From NCBI RefSeq assembly GCF_002025665.1, contig NZ_CP018786.1:744001-808000 (forward strand): 64,000 bases of DNA, read 5' to 3'. A program made the translations under genes and the position numbers. Under the pieces are notes generated by a model. That model made no database searches, was not told the DNA's origin, and worked only from the letters and a program-made list of their open reading frames with translations. This DNA is from Chryseobacterium indologenes (GTDB lineage: Bacteria > Bacteroidota > Bacteroidia > Flavobacteriales > Weeksellaceae). Positions 9,078 through 15,891 of the stretch are shown piece by piece; position 1 is the first letter of the stretch; each line of letters opens with the position of its first letter.

Positions 9078-9135
9078 CATCAGAAATCAGAGAGGAAGTA
9101 TCAACCTTCCCATGTTTAACAAAAAAACAGTAACC

Positions 9136-10653
9136 ATGAAATTTAATTTTTTAAGAAAAGAAAATAAAGTAGTACAGAACTACGAAGGTGCAAAAGCATA
9201 TGCCATGACACCTGCAGAAGAATTGTATAGTGCTGTTGTTACAACAGGACTGTCAGATGCCAATTATGAAAAAGGAAATGACAGATTGAAGAGAATCCAG
9301 TCTCTGATCAAAAAAAATGATCCTGAATTTGTGGCAAAGCTGGCCGTATATGCAAGAAAAGATATGTATCTGAGATCTATCCCATTGGTTTTGACAACTG
9401 AATTGGCAAAGCAGACTTCGGGTACAGATCTTGTAAGCAAAACAGTAGATGGAGTAGTTCAGAGAGCAGATGAAATCACAGAATTGCTGGCGTATTACCA
9501 GCTTGCCAACAAAAGAACAGATACCAAGAAACTGAACAAACTGTCCAAACAGATTCAGAAAGGTCTGGTAAAATCATTCAATAAATTTGATGAATACCAG
9601 TTTGCAAAGTATAACAGAAAAGCAGAAGTAACGCTGAAAGATGCATTATTCCTGGTTCATCCGAAAGCTAAAGATGAAAATCAGCAGGCTGTTTTCAACA
9701 AAATTGCCAATAATACACTGGAAACCCCTTACACTTGGGAAGTAGAACTTTCCGTTTTGGGTCAGAAGAAATTTGCAAACGATGCAGAAAGAAAAATGGC
9801 CTTCAAAAACAAATGGGAAGAATTGATTTTCAGTAATAAATTAGGCTATATGGCAACCATGAGAAACCTGAGAAATATCCTGGAAGCCGGAGTATCACCT
9901 GATGCAATGAATAAAGTTTGCAGATATCTTTCCGATGAAAAAGCAGTATCCAACTCAAAGCAGCTTCCGTTCCGATTCCTGGCAGCCTATAGAGAATTAA
10001 AAACAATAGATTCTCCTTATCTGTCTTCAGTACTGGAAGCCTTGGAAAATGCGGTGGTGGTAAGTGCTGAAAACATCAAAGGTTTTGGCTTTGACACCTC
10101 TGTAGTAATTGCAGCGGACGTGTCAGGCTCTATGCAGAAAGCCGTTTCGAGTAAAAGTAAAATTTTACTGTATGATATCGGTTTGCTGATGTCTATGATC
10201 TTGCAGTCACAGTGTAAAAATGTGGTAACGGGTATCTTCGGTGACCGTTGGTTGAGGGTTTCAATGCCGAAAAACGGTATTTTAAGGAACGTAGATGCAT
10301 TCTACAAACGTGAAGGTGAAGTAGGATATTCCACCAATGGTTACCTGATAATTGAAGATCTCATCAAAAGAAAAGAGCAGGTGGATAAAGTAATGCTTTT
10401 CACCGATACTCAAATGTGGGATAGCACAGGAAACAGAAACTCTTTCGAAGACGTGTGGAAAAAGTACAAAGCCATCGCGCCTCATGCAAAGCTGTATATT
10501 TTTGACCTTGCGGGTTATGGTACACAGCCACTTGATATCAGAAAGGATGATGTATACCTTATTGCTGGTTGGTCCGACAAAATTTTCGATGTACTGAATG
10601 CTCTGGAAGACAAAAAATCTGCCGTAAAAATGATTCAAAAAGTAGTGCTGTAA
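9136..10653 (+). CDS. TROVE-domain Ro60-like RNA-binding protein
   Basis: Ro60/Rsr orthologue of about 505 aa. The N-terminal TROVE/HEAT ring follows the typical 'MTPAEELYSAVVTTGLSD' opening and contains the 'DPEFVAKLAVYARKDMYLRS' segment. The C-terminal vWA domain has an intact MIDAS site, Asp328-x-Ser-x-Ser ('ADVSGSMQ'), and 'LFTDTQMW'. Ro60 rings bind Y RNAs on their outer surface and single-stranded ends of misfolded RNAs in the central cavity; in bacteria they act in RNA processing and decay after stress. Nine Y-RNA-like units lie downstream, which fits. An in-frame ATG at 9112 would add 8 residues; the one at 9136 fits the family start better. No rtcB or rtcA gene, the usual enterobacterial partners, is present. 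Confidence 0.92.
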   Translation: MKFNFLRKENKVVQNYEGAKAYAMTPAEELYSAVVTTGLSDANYEKGNDRLKRIQSLIKKNDPEFVAKLAVYARKDMYLRSIPLVLTTELAKQTSGTDLVSKTVDGVVQRADEITELLAYYQLANKRTDTKKLNKLSKQIQKGLVKSFNKFDEYQFAKYNRKAEVTLKDALFLVHPKAKDENQQAVFNKIANNTLETPYTWEVELSVLGQKKFANDAERKMAFKNKWEELIFSNKLGYMATMRNLRNILEAGVSPDAMNKVCRYLSDEKAVSNSKQLPFRFLAAYRELKTIDSPYLSSVLEALENAVVVSAENIKGFGFDTSVVIAADVSGSMQKAVSSKSKILLYDIGLLMSMILQSQCKNVVTGIFGDRWLRVSMPKNGILRNVDAFYKREGEVGYSTNGYLIIEDLIKRKEQVDKVMLFTDTQMWDSTGNRNSFEDVWKKYKAIAPHAKLYIFDLAGYGTQPLDIRKDDVYLIAGWSDKIFDVLNALEDKKSAVKMIQKVVL

Positions 10654-10667: not shown

Positions 10668-10814
10668 AAATAAAAATAAATATTCACGAACATCCTCAAT
10701 ATATTTAGGAGCTTAATCCCGCTTTCCACTGTATCTTTTTCGCCAAAGCTTTTTGCAAGCCATTAAGAAAAAGGATGCCGTTGCAATCGGGGCTAGAAAA
10801 ACAAACGATACGCT
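10668..10814. other. Intergenic spacer resembling a genus-wide repeat
   Basis: The stretch around 10709-10800 ('GGAGCTTAATCCCGC', 'GGATGCCGTTGCAATCGGGG') resembles an intergenic sequence I recall as recurring in Chryseobacterium genomes. There is only one copy in this window, so this rests on memory. No gene is supported on either strand. Confidence 0.35.
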
Positions 10815-11477
10815 ATGAAACTCATTAATACCATTGAAATTAGTCCACTGAGATATGCTAAAGAAGAATTCGAACTGCCGGAAAGTTCTGATTATCCGGA
10901 TCCTGAAGAGTGGTATACAAAATGGGAAGAAGTTGCTTCTCGATTGAATTTTAATTTTAAAACAATTCAAAAAGGATCTTATCTGGTGAATATTGAAGAT
11001 ATTGATGACGATAATCTAGAGATGATTGTAGAGGCCAAAATGGAAGACATGGAATCAGATGAATCTGAAGAAGATATTTGCATCATGGCTTTTGACGGTG
11101 GAATTGTATTAAAAATAGAAGATGAAATATTGATACAACCTAGCTGTTGTGGTGATATAAGCAATATTGAAGATTGGAGAAATATTTTTAAGATACCATC
11201 TTCAGAATGGAAAAACCTTTGGATAGGCCATCCATGGGTGTTTTACAAAAGGGAAAATGGAAAAGTCTGTTTCTCAGAATATACAGAATCCAATGTTGAA
11301 GACGTTGAAAACATAAAAATTGTTGCAGAAGTAGAAGAATCTGAACTCAAAGCTGAGTTAGAAAAAGTAGTCATGCAACAAATCAATTTAAAAAACAGAA
11401 TAATGTCTGTTCTAAAAACACTGAATTGTAAATATCCAGAGAAAATTTCAAAACAATTGGCGGGAACTAAAGAATGA
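10815..11477 (+). CDS. Hypothetical acidic protein, immunity-like
   Basis: Acidic soluble protein of 220 aa without a recognised catalytic motif. Features are 'EEWYTKWEEVASRLNFNF' near residue 30, a very acidic stretch at 50-95, 'QPSCCGDISNIEDW' near residue 110 and 'WIGHPWVFY' near 140. The size, acidity and Trp-rich pattern recall SMI1/KNR4-like immunity proteins, but I cannot place it in a family. It lies between the TROVE gene and the first RNA units and is followed by the 200-bp repeat copy 1. Confidence 0.65.
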   Translation: MKLINTIEISPLRYAKEEFELPESSDYPDPEEWYTKWEEVASRLNFNFKTIQKGSYLVNIEDIDDDNLEMIVEAKMEDMESDESEEDICIMAFDGGIVLKIEDEILIQPSCCGDISNIEDWRNIFKIPSSEWKNLWIGHPWVFYKRENGKVCFSEYTESNVEDVENIKIVAEVEESELKAELEKVVMQQINLKNRIMSVLKTLNCKYPEKISKQLAGTKE

Positions 11478-11672
11478 CATAGGAAACGGAGGCGTTAAAA
11501 AAATAAACTATGCGAACGTTAAGAAAATTCTATTGTCTGAAGCGCGACAAAGAAATTGAAACGAAGAACTCATATTACATTCGCGCAAGTTTTAGAATTT
11601 TTAGTGAGCGTAGATTATTTTTAGCCGGAGTTTCCAAGTCTTGAACTTTTGGTTCTTTTGCTTCAAGGCAAA
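11476..11672. repeat. 200-bp dispersed repeat, copy 1
   Basis: This segment matches 13138-13335 almost throughout: shared landmarks are GGAGGCGTTAAAAAAATAAA, GCGAACGTTAAGAAAATTCT, ATTCGCGCAAGTTT and the distal TTAGCCGGAGTTTCCAAGTC ... GGTTCTTTTGCTTCAAGGC. The minus strand is open in places, but the two copies differ by small indels that do not respect frame, so I do not call a protein. Long-spaced copies of this sequence look like a genus-typical intergenic repeat. Confidence 0.85.
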
Positions 11673-11729
11673 ACGAACAGAATCAAAAACTCTTATACAT
11701 GGTTACTTGGTTTAATTTAAAATAGTACT

Positions 11730-12267: not shown

Positions 12268-12303
12268 TACGTAAAAAGATTGCGTACATGTAATATAATT
12301 TTG
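12268..12303 (+). promoter_or_regulatory. Promoter with palindromic element, RNA units A1-A2
   Basis: TACGTAA-AAAGA-TTGCGTA (12268-12286) begins 28 nt before the -7 element TAATTTTG (12296-12303). Spacing and central AAAGA/ATAGA block equal those upstream of the TROVE gene. Confidence 0.75.
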
Positions 12304-12314
12304 CAGTGTTAATA

Positions 12315-12386
12315 CTATCGGTGCCGTTAGAAAGACATTCTTCGATTCCAAAAACAGACAGAGTCTTTCACATGATTGCCCGCTAG
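12315..12386 (+). ncRNA. Y-RNA-like unit A1 (short form)
   Basis: A 72-nt unit closed by CTATCGG (12315-12321) with CCGCTAG (12380-12386), one mismatch. An internal loop follows with TGCCGTTA on the 5' side and ACATGATTGC on the 3' side, then a perfect inner stem GAAAGAC/GTCTTTC (12330-12336 with 12363-12369). The conserved 24-nt block runs from 12321 to 12344 and ends TTCTTCG. The apical loop holds TTCGATTCC, like a T-loop, but has no flanking T-stem and no D-arm. By position it starts about 11 nt after the -7 box. Confidence 0.7.
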
Positions 12387-12388
12387 CT

Positions 12389-12470
12389 AACCAATGCCGT
12401 CGATAAGAGTTTCATCGTCAACTTCCAATTGAATATCATTTACTCTTATTATTAATTTGCTTGGTTTTTT
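12389..12470 (+). ncRNA. Y-RNA-like unit A2 (short form) with terminator tail
   Basis: Begins 2 nt after A1. Outer stem AACCAA (12389-12394) with TTGGTT (12461-12466); internal loop TGCCGTCG against TATTAATTTGC; perfect inner stem ATAAGAGT/ACTCTTAT (12403-12410 with 12442-12449). The 24-nt block is 12394-12417. The 31-nt apical loop shows no tRNA-like arms. The outer stem runs into a T-run and can end the A1-A2 transcript. Confidence 0.7.
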
Positions 12471-12484
12471 AATAAAAAAATAAG

Positions 12485-12520
12485 TGTGTAAAAAGAATGC
12501 GGACTAGCCATATAAATTTG
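12485..12520 (+). promoter_or_regulatory. Promoter with palindromic element, small CDS and C1-C2
   Basis: TGTGTAA-AAAGA-ATGCGGA (12485-12503), a weaker palindrome, begins 28 nt before the -7 element TAAATTTG (12513-12520). It drives the 73-aa gene and presumably the two RNA units after it. Confidence 0.72.
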
Positions 12521-12601
12521 CAAAATATAAAACGAATAATTATGATTCATCATAAACCAAATCTAAAAGGAACACTGTATTGAGGTTAATACTCAATACT
12601 T

Positions 12602-12823
12602 ATGAAAAAAATTAAAAAAGTAAGAAAGAAATTCGGATTCAATGAATATGAATTGACTGACTTTCCGAAGAAAATTTCCGGTGTACAGATTTCAAGAATC
12701 TTGTACGGGAATGAAATGGGTTGTTCGTACTGTTTTCCACACGGTTATGAAGTGGTGAATGCAAAGTACACCAAATTCCAGAGAAACTGGAAGAAGTATA
12801 GAAGAACTCAATGGAAAAATTAA
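12602..12823 (+). CDS. Small basic CxxC protein
   Basis: Very basic protein of 73 aa. It has 'GNEMGCSYCFPHG' (Cys-x2-Cys then Pro-His-Gly) in the middle and a C-terminal 'RNWKKYRRTQWKN' patch rich in Arg, Lys and aromatic residues. The pattern looks conserved and functional: the Cys pair plus His could bind zinc, and the basic tail suits RNA binding, but I know no established function. Its stop codon ends 1 nt before RNA unit C1 and it starts 80 nt after a Ro-regulon promoter, so the mRNA leads straight into the RNA units. This is a good candidate for an accessory protein of the Ro60/RNA system. Confidence 0.7.
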   Translation: MKKIKKVRKKFGFNEYELTDFPKKISGVQISRILYGNEMGCSYCFPHGYEVVNAKYTKFQRNWKKYRRTQWKN

Positions 12824-12824
12824 A

Positions 12825-12964
12825 ATCAGGTGTCGTTTTGGAATCATACTTCGGGTTACTCCTTCAGATGCGGGTTCAACTCCGGCCATTCCTGTTGTAA
12901 ACGGAATGTAGCTCAAATGATAGAGCAGAGGGAAAGGAAAAGGTTCCGCCACTTTTACCCTGAT
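12825..12964 (+). ncRNA. Y-RNA-like unit C1 with permuted tRNA-like domain
   Basis: Outer stem ATCAGG/CCTGAT (12825-12830 with 12959-12964); internal loop TGTCGTTTT against GCCACTTTTA; inner stem GGAATC/GGTTCC (12840-12845 with 12942-12947). The 24-nt block is 12830-12853. The apical domain is a circularly permuted tRNA: T-arm GCGGG-TTCAACT-CCGGC (12870-12886, one mismatch), 3' acceptor strand CATTCC (12887-12892), a 10-nt closing loop, 5' acceptor strand GGAATG (12903-12908), TA, then D-arm GCTC-AAATGATA-GAGC (12911-12926). Acceptor pairing is perfect over 6 bp. Confidence 0.82.
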
Positions 12965-12969
12965 CATAT

Positions 12970-13050
12970 AAAAGACTGCCATAGGGAATACTTACTTCGG
13001 TATAAGTTGGTTCGACTCCAGAATGTAAATGATCTTGTATCAGTCTTTTT
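12970..13050 (+). ncRNA. Y-RNA-like unit C2 (T-arm only)
   Basis: Outer stem AAAAGAC/GTCTTTT (12970-12976 with 13043-13049) ends in a T-run. The 24-nt block is 12976-12999 (CTGCCAT ... TACTTCG); a cUUCGg tetraloop hairpin can form at its end. A T-arm TTGG-TTCGACT-CCAG (13007-13021) follows, then a poorly paired AGA...TCT hairpin in place of an acceptor stem. No D-arm. It is a paralogue of D3, which keeps the acceptor-like stem. Confidence 0.68.
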
Positions 13051-13137
13051 GAACCTAACTTCTTTTATTTAAATCACACACATGAAAAAATAATAATAAA
13101 TAGGATGAAATATCCGGCGATGACAGCTATGGAAATG

Positions 13138-13335
13138 TGACATAGTAAACGGAGGCGTTAAAAAAATAAACTCTGCGAACGTTAAGAAAATTCTATTGTT
13201 TGAAGCGCGACACAGTAAAGGAAACGAAGAACTAATGGTAAATTCGCGCAAGTTTAGAATTTTTAGAGAGTAGAGATTATTTTTAGCCGGAGTTTCCAAG
13301 TCTTGAACTTTTGGTTCTTTTGCTTCAAGGCAAAA
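13138..13335. repeat. 200-bp dispersed repeat, copy 2
   Basis: Direct repeat of 11476-11672 in the same orientation. It ends just before the palindromic promoter of units D1-D3. Both copies therefore bracket the block holding the DUF6584-like gene, A1, A2, the small CDS, C1 and C2. Differences are scattered substitutions and short indels. Confidence 0.85.
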
Positions 13336-13357
13336 CAAAATTTAAATAAAAAATAAG

Positions 13358-13393
13358 TGCGTAAATAGAATGCGCAGTGACAATATAATTTTG
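13358..13393 (+). promoter_or_regulatory. Promoter with palindromic element, units D1-D3
   Basis: TGCGTAA-ATAGA-ATGCGCA (13358-13376) begins 28 nt before the -7 element TAATTTTG (13386-13393), the fourth instance of this arrangement. Confidence 0.75.
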
Positions 13394-13429
13394 TAAAAAG
13401 AAAACGAATAACTATGAATAAACATAGAA

Positions 13430-13557
13430 AGTAAGTGTCGTAAAGCAGAGTTACTTCTTTAGGGACGGTAATACAGGTTCGAATCCTGTTCTGCAATCGC
13501 AGATAGTAGAAATGGTAACACCCCGTATAAGTCTCTGTTTGATTTAATTACCTTACT
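13430..13557 (+). ncRNA. Y-RNA-like unit D1 with permuted tRNA-Gly-like domain
   Basis: Outer stem AGTAAG/CTTACT (13430-13435 with 13552-13557); internal loop TGTCGT against GATTTAATTAC; inner 8-bp stem AAGCAGAG/CTCTGTTT (13443-13450 with 13533-13540, one G-U). The 24-nt block is 13435-13458. The permuted tRNA-like domain has T-arm ACAGG-TTCGAAT-CCTGT (13473-13489, perfect), acceptor TCTGC/GCAGA (13490-13494 with 13499-13503) closed by only four nucleotides (AATC), and a D-arm-like GTAGAAATGGTAAC resembling tRNA-Gly. Confidence 0.82.
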
Positions 13558-13565
13558 AAAATAAA

Positions 13566-13710
13566 AATCAGGTGTCGTCTTAGAATCATACTTCGAGATT
13601 GAATAAACATTGGGTCGCAGGTTCGAATCCTGCCTTTTCCCCAGAAAAGGAGAGGTAGCTCAGCAGGTAGAGCAAATGCACGGAAGATTCTGAAAAAAAT
13701 TACCTTGATT
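13566..13710 (+). ncRNA. Y-RNA-like unit D2 with permuted tRNA-like domain
   Basis: Outer stem AATCAGG/CCTTGATT with one bulge (13566-13572 with 13703-13710); internal loop TGTCGTC against AAAAAATTA; inner 8-bp stem TTAGAATC/GATTCTGA (13580-13587 with 13686-13693). The 24-nt block is 13572-13595. T-arm GCAGG-TTCGAAT-CCTGC (13617-13633, perfect), 7-bp acceptor CTTTTCC/GGAGAGG (13634-13640 with 13649-13655, two G-U), 8-nt closing loop CCAGAAAA, TA, D-arm GCTC-AGCAGGTA-GAGC (13658-13673) with the tRNA-like GG in the D-loop. Confidence 0.85.
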
Positions 13711-13715
13711 GATAT

Positions 13716-13800
13716 AAAAGAGTGCCGTAGAAAAGGCCTACTTCGGTTTAATTTGGTTCGACTCCAGAAGGTCATGGAAATGATCTTGTACAAGTCTTTT
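13716..13800 (+). ncRNA. Y-RNA-like unit D3 (T-arm/acceptor minihelix)
   Basis: Outer stem AAAAGA/TCTTTT (13716-13721 with 13795-13800). The 24-nt block is 13722-13745. T-arm TTTGG-TTCGACT-CCAGA (13752-13768, 5 bp with one G-U) is followed without gap by a 7-bp stem AGGTCAT/ATGATCT (13769-13775 with 13780-13786, one G-U) closed by a GGAA tetraloop. Five plus seven base pairs reproduce the 12-bp T-arm/acceptor minihelix of a tRNA. No D-arm is present. A T-rich tail follows. Confidence 0.72.
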
Positions 13801-13837
13801 CGAATCTTGCCTCTTTTTTATTATAAAATTAATAACA

Positions 13838-14677
13838 ATGGATATACCAAGTAATCTGACTGAATTTTTATACTGGATTAAAGAACGCACAGAAAAACTG
13901 TGGTCTGTAGATGATGAAAATTGTCCGAAAGGATTTTATGGTGCCAGATGGCAAGGGCTTTCTGAAGAACAGATTGATCAGGTTGAGCGAAAATATGAGG
14001 TCAGTTTTACTCCTGAACATAGAGCGTTTCTAAAAATTCTTCATGCGATCGACAAAAAAGAAATTGTTGAATATGAAGATGAAGGAGAATTAATTACTGA
14101 AGAACGTGATTTCTTTTATAATTGGCTTGCTGATGAAAAGGAAGTTAAAGAAATAATAAAAGGTTCTTATAATTGGATGAAGTACGATGTGAATGAGAAG
14201 AGCCAGGTGTGGCTTAATTCCTGGGGAATAAAACCTGCATCTTTGGAAAAGAGAATAGAAGTTTTTGAAGAATGGTTTTCTCATGTTCCTGCTCTTTTAC
14301 CATTAACAGGTCTCCGATATGTTATAAGTGATGAGAATCTTAAATGGAAGCCCATTATTTCTATGGGATCTTCCGATATTATTGTCATGGGTTGGGATTT
14401 TAGAACTTATTTATTAAATGAAATAGGTAACCATCTTGATATTCATATTGAGGTCTTTGATGAAGAAGATCAAATGTTTTATCCGGAACTTATTGATGAG
14501 GTAAAGAATATATTTAGTGAGAACTTTAAGTATGATGAAACCAAAGATATTCCTTATCTGAAAGAAAGGATTCTCTATTGGTCTTCCGGATTGAGTAGTT
14601 TTGGTTTAAGCTATCACCCTGAAAATGCCAGAGTTCATCCTATTGTTAAAACATATACAACTGAAGAAGAAAAATAA
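13838..14677 (+). CDS. SMI1/KNR4 (SUKH) family protein
   Basis: Soluble protein of 279 aa with the SMI1/KNR4 signature 'WQGLSEEQIDQVERKYEVSF' (about residues 38-57) and 'TPEHRAFLKILHAID'. SUKH proteins are mostly immunity factors against secreted polymorphic toxins and some serve as adaptor domains; no cognate toxin is seen in this window. It lies between RNA units D3 and E1, starts 37 nt after D3 and its stop codon is 4 nt before E1, so it is probably on the same transcript as the RNA units. Whether it takes part in the Ro60 system or is a passenger is unknown. Confidence 0.75.
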   Translation: MDIPSNLTEFLYWIKERTEKLWSVDDENCPKGFYGARWQGLSEEQIDQVERKYEVSFTPEHRAFLKILHAIDKKEIVEYEDEGELITEERDFFYNWLADEKEVKEIIKGSYNWMKYDVNEKSQVWLNSWGIKPASLEKRIEVFEEWFSHVPALLPLTGLRYVISDENLKWKPIISMGSSDIIVMGWDFRTYLLNEIGNHLDIHIEVFDEEDQMFYPELIDEVKNIFSENFKYDETKDIPYLKERILYWSSGLSSFGLSYHPENARVHPIVKTYTTEEEK

Positions 14678-14681
14678 AAAC

Positions 14682-14834
14682 AAACAAGTGTCGTAGAAAA
14701 ATGTTACTTCGCTCATCACGACGGGGTCACGGGTTCGAGTCCCGTCTCTTCCACAACAAAAAACACAGTCTATAATAGGAAGAGTAGCTCAGTTGGTTAG
14801 AGCACGACTACATTATTCGCGTATTGCCTTGTTT
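14682..14834 (+). ncRNA. Y-RNA-like unit E1 with complete permuted tRNA-like domain
   Basis: Outer stem AAACAAG/CTTGTTT (14682-14688 with 14828-14834); internal loop TGTCGTAG against CGCGTATTGC; inner stem AAAAATG/CATTATT (14697-14703 with 14811-14817, one mismatch). The 24-nt block is 14688-14711. T-arm ACGGG-TTCGAGT-CCCGT (14729-14745, perfect); acceptor CTCTTCC/GGAAGAG (14746-14752 with 14778-14784, perfect 7 bp) closed by a 25-nt A-rich loop; TA; D-arm GCTC-AGTTGGTTA-GAGC (14787-14803). Every arm except the anticodon arm equals a canonical tRNA, in permuted order. Confidence 0.88.
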
Positions 14835-14845
14835 TCATAATATGA

Positions 14846-14950
14846 GAAGCCGGAAGTGGGACGTTGAAAGATTTCTTTGTATCATAATTTTCTATAAAGT
14901 CAGAGAGATTTTCAGGCTTTAACCCCTTTCTTCTGCCCACTTCCAGCTTC
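14846..14950. repeat. Imperfect inverted-repeat insertion between E1 and E2
   Basis: GAAGCCGGAAGTGGG (14846-14860) faces CCCACTTCCAGCTTC (14936-14950), 14 of 15 positions complementary. The 75 nt between are AT-rich. The size and ends look like a small non-autonomous element. The minus strand is open across it, but no protein family is evident. Confidence 0.6.
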
Positions 14951-14963
14951 TTTATATGACCAT

Positions 14964-15099
14964 TTTGAAGTGTCGTTAGGAAAAAATTCATCGTAACACA
15001 ATCATGGGAGGAATAGCGAAGCCGGTCACTCCGGCAAGGTTATCCGGTTCGACTCCGGCATACGTTTAGCCCAGTTTTTTCCTTACTTTTACCTTTAAA
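14964..15099 (+). ncRNA. Y-RNA-like unit E2 (non-permuted arms)
   Basis: Outer stem TTTGAAG/CTTTAAA (14964-14970 with 15093-15099); internal loop TGTCGTT against TACTTTTAC; perfect 9-bp inner stem AGGAAAAAA/TTTTTTCCT (14978-14986 with 15075-15083). The 24-nt block is 14970-14993. Inside, a GCCGG-TCACT-CCGGC hairpin (15021-15035) precedes a T-arm-like CCGG-TTCGACT-CCGG (15044-15058), so the arm order is that of a normal tRNA, unlike the other large units. A possible TGGG/CCCA pairing encloses them. Confidence 0.72.
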
Positions 15100-15113
15100 A
15101 AAATGCCGGTAGA

Positions 15114-15452
15114 TTACTTACTGGCATTTTTCATTGTATTTTCAAGCTCTTCTTCAAACATTCCTTTCCATTTTGAAAGCGTTGTTCGGCTTATTTTATA
15201 TTTTCGTGACATATAACTCGTAGAATGACCATGCTTTTTTTGATACTGAAGCAGTTTTAGCATAGTCTGTCTGTCATAGGTTTTGAGTTTTTGATTTTCT
15301 CTGGACTGTTTGAACAGTTTTTCATTGAACTTAAGAACATCTTCGCTCGTATGAAGCTTTTCAAGAAGGTCTTTAACTTTTGGATCTTTAAGCTTTTCGG
15401 GATATTCCATCCTCAGCATATCCTGGTAAATTTTTTTGTAATTAGGGCGCAT
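15114..15452 (-). CDS. Transposase-type HTH protein, second of pair
   Basis: Protein of 112 aa starting at 'MRPNYKKIYQDMLRMEYPEK'. The C-terminal half is a helix-turn-helix of the Hin/IS-type: 'QKKHGHSTSYMSRKYKISRT' followed by 'TLSKWKGMF'. A longer frame begins upstream, but this ATG follows the end of the partner gene by 10 bp and fits the sequence I recall for this Chryseobacterium family. It forms a pair with the next gene. No DDE catalytic domain is coded nearby, so these are stand-alone HTH proteins or an IS remnant. Confidence 0.7.
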   Translation of the reverse strand: MRPNYKKIYQDMLRMEYPEKLKDPKVKDLLEKLHTSEDVLKFNEKLFKQSRENQKLKTYDRQTMLKLLQYQKKHGHSTSYMSRKYKISRTTLSKWKGMFEEELENTMKNASK

Positions 15453-15462
15453 GTTTATCTGT

Positions 15463-15891
15463 TTATCCGTTTGCGTTATCACTCTTCTGAAGCCATCTGT
15501 GAAGAGTGCTTTTCGGAATAGAATATTCTTTAATAACTTCACTTTGAGTCATTTCACCAGAAAGAATTCTTTTCATAATAAAATCTTTGATTTCCTGTGT
15601 ATAAATATTTTTCCTGAAATAAGGTGTTTTTTCGGATTTCTGCTGATTTTTATTAATGGCGGAAGGAGGAGCGTATAAAATCAAATGTGAACTGTAAAGT
15701 CTGAAAAAATCATATTCCAGCAATTTGCTCCATCTTAAAAGAAGATCCGTATCCATTGATCTGCTGTCATACATCATTTCGACAGCCTCTTCATCTTTAC
15801 TTAAAAATTTACATATTCTCTCTACTGTAATTTCATTTTCATCAACTCTTTCCTTAATGAATTTCCCAATATGGATTTCTTTATATAACAT
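15463..15891 (-). CDS. Transposase-type HTH protein, first of pair
   Basis: Protein of 142 aa. The N-terminal part ('HIGKFIKERVDENEITVERI') looks like a Cro-type region, the middle carries 'RWSKLLEYDFFRLYSSHLIL', and the C-terminus is an IS-type HTH 'MTQSEVIKEYSIPKSTLHRW'. Such pairs recur in Chryseobacterium chromosomes with the same order and no DDE transposase. Function unknown: either a domesticated transposition regulator pair or an IS relic. It is immediately downstream, on the opposite strand, of the RNA array. Confidence 0.7.
   Translation of the reverse strand: MLYKEIHIGKFIKERVDENEITVERICKFLSKDEEAVEMMYDSRSMDTDLLLRWSKLLEYDFFRLYSSHLILYAPPSAINKNQQKSEKTPYFRKNIYTQEIKDFIMKRILSGEMTQSEVIKEYSIPKSTLHRWLQKSDNANG

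What the first reader, a model, noticed from the sequence alone, without database searches (positions are those of the whole stretch)
12315..15099. Nine Y-RNA-like units share an invariant 24-nt block beside a Ro60 gene
Seen: nine units (A1 12315, A2 12389, C1 12825, C2 12970, D1 13430, D2 13566, D3 13716, E1 14682, E2 14964) each carry a block of exactly 24 nt beginning TGYCGT-like and ending TACTTCG-like. In seven (A1, A2, C1, D1, D2, E1, E2) the unit's ends pair as an outer stem, then an asymmetric internal loop (TGYCGT on the 5' side, AATTACC/TTTTACC/ATTGCC-like on the 3' side), then an inner stem of 6-9 bp; C2 and D3 keep the outer stem. Outer and inner stems differ in sequence but keep pairing, which is covariation. 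Known: Y RNAs pair their two ends and bind Ro60 via a conserved site in that stem; bacterial Y RNAs can mimic tRNAs. Inference: the internal loop is the Ro60 site. A family of up to nine Y RNAs in one locus would be unusually large.
Basis: partly seen in the sequence, partly recalled or inferred. Interest (0 to 1): 0.95.

Follow-up and report, generated by a model that had tools for sequence, protein, structure and literature searches.

The report
Ro60's kit of Y RNA adaptors
Beside a bacterial Ro60 gene lie nine repeated sequence units that share one conserved stem-forming handle but carry different inserts, three of them a rearranged tRNA; they are likely Y RNA genes, predicted to let one Ro60 protein hold many different partners.

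Summary
Nine units (12313-15101) share a fixed 23-nt block (not 24) and one stem: outer helix, bulged U, a G-C and a covarying Y-R pair, internal loop, inner helix. The window and 80 related Ro60 loci hold 468 blocks downstream of Ro60 on its strand (at most 4 on the other). The Y-R pair is C-G, U-A or U-G in 424 of 429 units. A covariance model of these RNAs hits exactly the 14 of 295 class genomes that encode Ro60. So Y RNAs are the right reading, by inference; transcription and Ro60 binding were not tested.

New: the inserts are modular. C1, D2 and E1 carry a circularly permuted tRNA (YrlA-like, below Rfam's threshold), others a T-loop or a bare hairpin; in 14 relatives one unit carries 25-33 nt of 23S rRNA. 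Arrays of 2-11 units are usual. Ro60 and three of the four unit clusters share a palindromic operator that is rare elsewhere in the genome. Likely mechanism: one Ro60, many interchangeable RNA adaptors. Unit C2 looks decayed here.

The parts
9136..10653 (+). Ro60 / Rsr gene (TROVE + vWA); ORF listed from 9112, likely true start 9136
   Evidence: Pfam TROVE 104 bits (cut-off 23), vWA_Ro60 29.4 (cut-off 27.7); only TROVE gene found in the genome
9042..9077 (+). palindromic operator + TATTTTG (-7-like) upstream of Ro60
   Evidence: exact motif match, one of 3 exact in 5.3 Mb; operator upstream of Ro60 in 70 of 75 loci
12268..12303 (+). operator + TATAATTTTG before cluster A
   Evidence: exact motif match
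12313..12388 (+). Y RNA unit A1 (class G6), short hairpin, no distal module
   Evidence: R1 E 2.7e-6; fold z -2.68; class G6 in 22 loci
12386..12469 (+). Y RNA unit A2 (class G5), short hairpin; outer stem followed by a T run
   Evidence: R1 E 0.008; fold z -2.22; class G5 in 30 loci
12485..12520 (+). operator (2 mismatches) + TATAAATTTG before ORF 12602 and cluster C
12602..12823 (+). 73-aa conserved ORF inside the array, under the C promoter
   Evidence: 104 homologues; in 37 of 80 named loci
12822..12967 (+). Y RNA unit C1 (class G0), permuted-tRNA module
   Evidence: Rfam YrlA E 5.3e-4, below gathering; R1 training member; G0 in 64 loci
12968..13068 (+). Y RNA unit C2 (class G4), apparently decayed copy: TGCCAT, C.A at the Y-R pair
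   Evidence: R1 E 0.057
13358..13393 (+). operator + TATAATTTTG before cluster D
   Evidence: exact motif match
13427..13560 (+). Y RNA unit D1 (class G3), T-arm, acceptor-like hairpin, weak D-arm-like part
   Evidence: R1 E 2.5e-12, not a training member; G3 D-part 12.0 vs 9.3 shuffled
13564..13712 (+). Y RNA unit D2 (class G0), permuted-tRNA module
   Evidence: Rfam YrlA E 1.1e-4, below gathering; predicted fold shows T, acceptor and D stems as in the model
13714..13819 (+). Y RNA unit D3 (class G4), T-loop hairpin plus second hairpin
   Evidence: R1 E 1.7e-10, not a training member
14680..14836 (+). Y RNA unit E1 (class G1), permuted-tRNA module
   Evidence: Rfam YrlA E 8.9e-6, below gathering; 77.5% over 40 nt and 88% over 25 nt to the tRNA genes of the rrn operon
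14962..15101 (+). Y RNA unit E2 (class G2), T-loop-bearing module, no permuted tRNA detected
   Evidence: R1 E 3.6e-7, not a training member; class G2 in 57 loci
15099..15131 (+). intrinsic-terminator-like hairpin closing the array (14 pairs)

Best explanation
The nine units share one stem whose pairs covary across related Ro60 loci, and they are most likely Y RNAs: each is predicted to be held by the neighbouring Ro60 through that shared stem, while its differing insert (a circularly permuted tRNA in three, T-loop or bare hairpins in the rest) would tether or gate a different partner. Shown here: the stem, its covariation, the modular inserts, the permuted-tRNA order, the co-occurrence with Ro60, and the palindromic motif before Ro60 and three clusters. 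Inferred: that the units are transcribed; that the motif is an operator; that Ro60 binds the bulged-U / GY-RC / internal-loop element; that tRNA-shaped inserts dock tRNA-binding enzymes (PNPase, or tRNA modification or repair enzymes); that the bare hairpins A1 and A2 only occupy or gate Ro60; that Ro60 and the RNAs are induced together, perhaps on RNA damage.
For: Block: 468 + strand hits in 79 of 81 sequences, 4 on the - strand (score 9). Pairing: Y-R 201 C-G, 198 U-A, 25 U-G against 5 others of 429; outer pairs 1-5 paired in 423-428 of 429; inner stem >=14 in 368 of 429 vs 81 of 429 swapped. 51-sequence alignment: 94.2% of cells paired vs 80.1% shuffled, 24 of 33 pairs changed on both sides vs 17.3 shuffled, 0 of 500 shuffles as high. 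Co-occurrence: the same 14 of 295 class genomes have model R1 (E <= 1e-9) and TROVE (P 3e-24); in the genus 102 of 102 genomes with a Ro60 match at E < 1e-100 have R1 at E <= 2e-20, and of 39 without Ro60 the best is 4.7e-8. Permuted tRNA: circular reading of 387 unit bodies gives 67 tRNA calls (one of them holds true tRNAs), linear reading 1, shuffled 0. Operator: 209 sites on the + strand, 0 on the - strand of 79 sequences; upstream of Ro60 in 70 of 75; in the own genome 3 exact sites, all in this locus.
Against: No transcript or binding data. Rfam's YrlA gathering score (69 bits) was reached by no unit tested (best 36.9 here, 42.2 in a relative). C2 departs from the stem. Folded alone, only A1 and A2 have z below -2; C1 is no better than shuffles (z -0.28), and the best folds of C2 and D3 are not the model. 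D-arm and T-arm parts point to different tRNA species, so no specific tRNA partner is suggested. Nothing identifies a partner protein, so 'different partners' rests on the inserts differing. E1/E2 have no operator of their own. 39 of 468 blocks found no outer stem of score 9.
Confidence: 0.72

Rival explanations
1. Decoys rather than tethers: Ro60-stabilised RNAs that imitate tRNA and rRNA targets so that tRNA- or rRNA-attacking enzymes (toxins, phage or host nucleases) are titrated, as part of an RNA damage island.
For: Inserts imitate tRNA and, in relatives, a 23S stretch; tRNA arrays lie near Ro60 in some loci and an RNA ligase lies upstream here. PMC7790460 (passages) itself raises a competitive-inhibitor role for YrlA.
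Against: The G0/G1 units lack an anticodon arm, the usual target of anticodon nucleases; bare hairpins imitate nothing I could name; one common Ro60 handle is not needed for a decoy.
Confidence: 0.15
2. Permuted tRNA genes that mature into working tRNAs, or a graveyard of broken tRNA genes.
For: Strong D-arm and T-arm matches to real tRNAs; real tRNA genes stand near units in some relatives.
Against: No anticodon arm in G0/G1; conserved stem and order of units; acceptor end closed by a loop; dependence on Ro60; bare hairpin units have no tRNA part.
Confidence: 0.03
3. A DNA-level element (recombination or attachment sites of a cassette array, or transcription-factor sites) that only looks like RNA.
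For: ORFs of varying content sit between units; the block has fixed spacing; two ORFs with weak HTH/transposase-like matches lie just downstream (15114-15891).
Against: Covariation of pairs up to about 150 nt apart; strict strand bias; no integrase among the nine neighbours scanned; the palindromic operator is a separate element.
Confidence: 0.03

Closest known systems
YrlA (Rfam RF02553), bacterial Y RNA with tRNA-like domain
   Same: End-pairing stem, internal loop, inner stem, then T-arm, acceptor closed by a loop, D-arm: a circularly permuted tRNA (Rfam alignments; circular permutation of the solved Y RNA 6CU1 described in PMC11472068, passages).
   Different: Below Rfam's gathering score; GYCGU / UURCC in place of the YrlA loop letters; several units per locus; a 23-nt block kept even where the tRNA module is absent.
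Deinococcus radiodurans Ro60-Y RNA-PNPase complex (RYPER)
   Same: One Ro60 ring protein, Y RNA as tether and gate (PMC4726728 and PMC8394870, passages).
   Different: Two Y RNAs there (from recall) against nine here; partner here unknown.
Salmonella rsr-yrlBA-rtcBA RNA repair operon
   Same: Ro60 with Y RNAs in an RNA-repair setting (PMC7790460, passages).
   Different: Here a T4 Rnl2-type RNA ligase and a 17-tRNA array lie upstream; RtcB was not looked for.
Vertebrate Y RNAs
   Same: Lower stem with a single bulged base and an opposite bulge as the Ro60 site (PMC4726728, passage).
   Different: Bulged U instead of C, different upper module, no sequence homology claimed.

Membership tests
bacterial Y RNA | 5' and 3' ends pair in a long stem | tested here: met
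   outer stem score >=9 in 429 of 468 units, all nine in the window at >=13
bacterial Y RNA | encoded near a Ro60 gene and present only with it | tested here: met
   same 14 of 295 class genomes; genus 102 of 102 vs 0 of 39; exceptions G039 and G124 have only partial Ro60 matches, in fragmented assemblies
bacterial Y RNA | conserved Ro60-site letters in the stem (GNCGAA / CNUUGNC, recalled) | tested here: inconclusive
   GYCGU and UURCC: partial match only; the reference letters come from recall
bacterial Y RNA | bound by Ro60 | not testable with these tools
   needs pull-down or gel shift
YrlA (RF02553) | reaches Rfam gathering score 69 | tested here: not met
   36.9, 33.1, 30.8 bits in the window; 42.2 in L046; none at gathering in the window or in six loci
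YrlA (RF02553) | circularly permuted tRNA module: T-arm, acceptor, D-arm | tested here: met
   C1, D2, E1; 67 of 387 bodies circular vs 1 linear vs 0 shuffled. Not seen in A1, A2, C2, D3, E2; weak in D1
YrlA (RF02553) | T-loop and D-loop modified by TruB and DusA | not testable with these tools
   T-loop GGTTCRANTCC exact in 78 of 86 G0 and 54 of 60 G1 units; modification unknown
Ro60 / Rsr protein | TROVE domain plus vWA domain | tested here: met
   both over Pfam cut-off; solved TROVE proteins 9l5y, 9kop at E 6e-28
RYPER | Y RNA tethers Ro60 to PNPase | not tested
   no interaction data

The most novel reading that the evidence does not exclude
Ro60 in Bacteroidia is a programmable ring: one protein loaded by an inherited library of 2-11 RNA adaptors with a common handle and exchangeable heads that imitate different parts of the translation machinery (permuted tRNAs, T-loops, and in some species a piece of 23S rRNA), induced together with Ro60 by one operator, so that each adaptor sends the ring to a different enzyme or damaged RNA.
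Probability: 0.42. Interest if true: 0.93.

Novelty: new variant of a known kind. Interest (0 to 1): 0.84.

Why it matters
What Y RNAs are for, and why a cell has more than one, is an open question. Here the same Ro60 comes with a conserved, ordered set of Y-RNA-like units with one handle and different heads, in dozens of sequenced species. That makes the tether model directly testable: swap heads, delete single units, ask which partner is lost. An rRNA-imitating Y RNA would be a new kind of head, and would fit the reported role of a Ro60 ortholog in 23S rRNA maturation in Deinococcus (title in the reference list of PMC8394870; that paper itself was not seen).

Tried and rejected
Rejected: isotype-specific tRNA mimicry (D-part and T-part of a class best match different tRNAs); E2 and the C2/D3 class as permuted tRNAs (their D-part scores about as shuffles: 9.9 vs 9.0 and 7.5 vs 8.9; no shuffle control was run for the T-part); the rest of the ~230-nt class as rRNA (of five stretches of L046 only the first beats shuffles); cassette attachment sites and tRNA pseudogenes (see rivals). 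Sigma-70-type promoter scan: 9 found against 20.8 in shuffles, no support; Bacteroidetes promoters differ (recalled). Folding units alone: eight of nine folded (E1 exceeds the 150-base limit); C1, C2 and D3 do not support the model on their own. Literature: ten searches, of which I saw listings, and passages of seven papers; no listed title deals with Y RNAs of Chryseobacterium or an rRNA-like Y RNA. Four papers hold both 'Y RNA' and 'Chryseobacterium'; I opened one of them (passages). The main papers on bacterial Y RNAs are not held, so absence from print is not shown.

Rows set aside: 39 of 468 blocks without an outer-stem score of 9 were left out of pair counts; two blocks (L065, L100; cluster G16) look like coding sequence (not translated) and are still in the 468; L035 and L066 gave no units, probably because their contigs end soon after Ro60. 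Alignment A1 uses 51 of the 159 units of clusters G0, G1, G10 and G23, chosen for length, intact stem and diversity. C1, D2 and E1 are training members of R1, and R1's training loci come from species that overlap the genus sample; as far as unnamed handles tell, most class genomes are not training members. 19 of the 39 genomes without Ro60 are not printed and were named by elimination. One search printed 40 of its 67 calls.
Full report
OBSERVATION. The window is G000:C1:744001-808000 of a complete 5.3 Mb genome. Ro60 lies at 9112-10653; many relatives have one stop inside the match to the listed ORF with an open frame of about 506-516 residues, so the likely start is 9136. Pfam gives TROVE and vWA_Ro60 over cut-off. 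Downstream lie the nine units as reported. The fixed block is 23 nt.

STRUCTURE. Each unit reads: outer helix of 6-8 pairs; bulged U; G-C; a Y-R pair; CGU against a U-rich 3' loop; inner helix of about 8 pairs; the conserved TNCNTCG; insert; and back. In 429 of 468 units with an outer stem the Y-R pair is C-G 201, U-A 198, U-G 25, other 5; among 276 distinct combinations 121, 125, 25 and 5. In 64 of 67 units of distant class genomes it is C-G 44, U-A 14, U-G 4, other 2. The 3' position was chosen by best score and had to be RC, so the fair controls are the borrowed strands, which use the same search: outer score >=14 in 352 of 468 own against 140 of 2340 borrowed; inner >=14 in 368 of 429 own against 81 of 429 swapped. 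That Y picks its own R (4 C.A against 201 C-G) was not built into the search.

MODULES. Clustering gives 24 groups. Window: A1=G6, A2=G5, C1=G0, C2=G4, D1=G3, D2=G0, D3=G4, E1=G1, E2=G2; the order G6 G5 - G0 G4 - [G3] G0 G4 - G1 G2 recurs, with losses and duplications, in L033, L034, L038 and L093 (which printed 12 of 79), so the array seems to have grown by block duplication. G0 and G1 (and G10 of Flavobacterium) hold a T-arm, an acceptor stem closed by a loop and a D-arm, in that order: a tRNA opened at the anticodon side and closed at the acceptor end, with the inner stem in the place of the anticodon stem. Read circularly, 67 of 387 bodies are called tRNAs (one holds true tRNAs), against 1 linearly and 0 shuffled. 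Rfam YrlA matches C1, D2, E1 at E 5e-4 to 9e-6, all below gathering; at gathering none of the nine is found, nor any unit in L033, L034, L046, L098, L184 or L187. G2 and G4 have a T-loop but no detected D-arm; G5-G7 and G13 are bare hairpins. A unit of at most 90 nt occurs in 57 of 79 unit-bearing near loci and 10 of 13 class loci.

rRNA-LIKE MODULE. In 14 of 79 unit-bearing loci (not the window) a ~230-nt unit (G9) begins with 25-33 nt that match the own genome's 23S rRNA at 88-100% (L046: 33 of 33, E 1.5e-9). Searching 95 whole sequences, these 14 places are the only matches to that 23S site; 8 further weak matches hit other parts of the rrn stretch outside this class. That the site is helix 69/70 is from recall of 23S numbering. 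The rest of the unit matches no rRNA above shuffles.

DISTRIBUTION. In 148 genus genomes 109 have a Ro60 match. Reading together (handles counted): 102 of 102 with E < 1e-100 have R1 at E <= 2e-20; so do G039 (a Ro60 fragment) and G124 (only a diverged 37% piece), both fragmented assemblies of 87% and 73% completeness; of 39 without Ro60 the best R1 hit is 4.7e-8 (probably true tRNAs). Of the five others, G134 (diverged Ro60 only) has R1 at 2e-10; G017, G034, G063 (diverged Ro60) and G046 (a 60-residue Ro60 remnant with stops) have nothing better than 2.7e-7. In 295 class genomes the same 14, the own one included, have both; in the 13 others 3-8 blocks each lie on the Ro60 strand and none on the other, in G224 about 26 kb from Ro60. 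Both samples are drawn from larger groups, and were scored with stricter filters.

REGULATION. A palindrome TRCGYAAAWAGAWTGCGYA followed by TAnnTTTG occurs 104 times on the + strand and never on the - strand of 79 sequences: 23 stand within 19 nt and 30 within 20-60 nt of the next unit, 24 at 300-315 nt (in the window the 73-aa ORF lies between), 8 lie before the end of Ro60 and 19 elsewhere; 15 of 79 loci, mostly Flavobacterium, have none with this spacing. The palindrome alone, with up to 2 mismatches, occurs 209 times on the + strand and never on the - strand, and lies within 350 nt upstream of Ro60 in 70 of 75 loci, with a slightly different centre in Flavobacterium. In the own genome, up to 2 mismatches, six sites exist: Ro60, A and D exact, C with 2, one before a TatD nuclease gene with 1, one more with 2. 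E1 starts directly after an ORF and probably rides on a longer transcript (inference). The array ends in a 14-pair terminator-like hairpin (11 such found in the region against 3.5 in shuffles).

SETTING. Upstream of the window lie 17 tRNA genes, a T4 Rnl2-type RNA ligase, and nuclease- and phosphoesterase-like genes. tRNAs recur near Ro60: 32 of 94 loci have at least one within the fetched stretch (62 have none), 20 of 80 near loci have at least 4, and 14 class stretches hold 55 tRNAs in 145.5 kb against 2.4 expected at own-genome density, 44 of them in three stretches. This suggests, but does not show, a role in RNA damage. Rnl2 and DUF6493/SWIM were not found in the class stretches, but these are mostly downstream of Ro60.

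VERDICT. The units are very likely Y RNAs (about 0.93); that they serve as adaptors with different partners is the best mechanism (about 0.7 for the whole). By Rfam's own threshold they are not members of YrlA; three of them are built like it. The novelty lies in the multi-headed array with a common operator and in the rRNA-like head of relatives.

Noticed in passing
G000:C1:737168-739665 (L170:2669-5166), about 13.4 kb upstream of Ro60: Array of 17 tRNA genes followed by an Rnl2-type RNA ligase, MBL-fold, metallophosphoesterase-like and RNase_T genes; tRNA arrays recur near Ro60 in relatives (L053, L054, L060, L195, L196, L197).
   Followed up: partly
L046:13628-13857 and 13 other named loci: Y-RNA-like unit with a 25-33 nt copy of a 23S rRNA stretch (helix 69/70 by recall).
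   Followed up: partly
L186, L188, L195 (class genomes): Some units look like tRNAs permuted at the D-loop with an anticodon arm kept, a second permutation topology; judged by eye only.
   Followed up: no
window 12602-12823: 73-aa ORF in the array, conserved mainly in Chryseobacterium, named phosphate ABC transporter substrate-binding protein in databases, which looks wrong for its size; contains GCSYCFPHGYE.
   Followed up: partly
window 10711-10798, - strand: Flavo-1 RNA (RF01705), 64.5 bits, directly after Ro60.
   Followed up: no
window 11475-11677 and 13138-13339: Two copies of a ~200-nt repeat (88-94% identical) before the A cluster and before the D cluster.
   Followed up: no
window 14841-14958: Long imperfect inverted repeat between E1 and E2 (chance matches to plant miRNA families); nearly the same E1-E2 spacing occurs in close relatives such as L033.
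   Followed up: no
window 15114-15891, - strand: Two overlapping 142-aa ORFs with weak HTH or transposase-like Pfam matches just downstream of the array.
   Followed up: no
G000:C1:723314-723332 (L169:2815-2833): Operator copy with 1 mismatch before a TatD nuclease gene: possible further member of the regulon.
   Followed up: no
L046, L049, L057, L060, L064, L065, L067, L100: Operator plus -7 box also 3.9-10.2 kb before the end of Ro60, in front of genes not examined.
   Followed up: no
G046, G134 (genus sample): G046 keeps a Ro60 remnant with stops and no strong R1 hit (co-loss); G134 has only a diverged Ro60 and an intermediate R1 hit.
   Followed up: no
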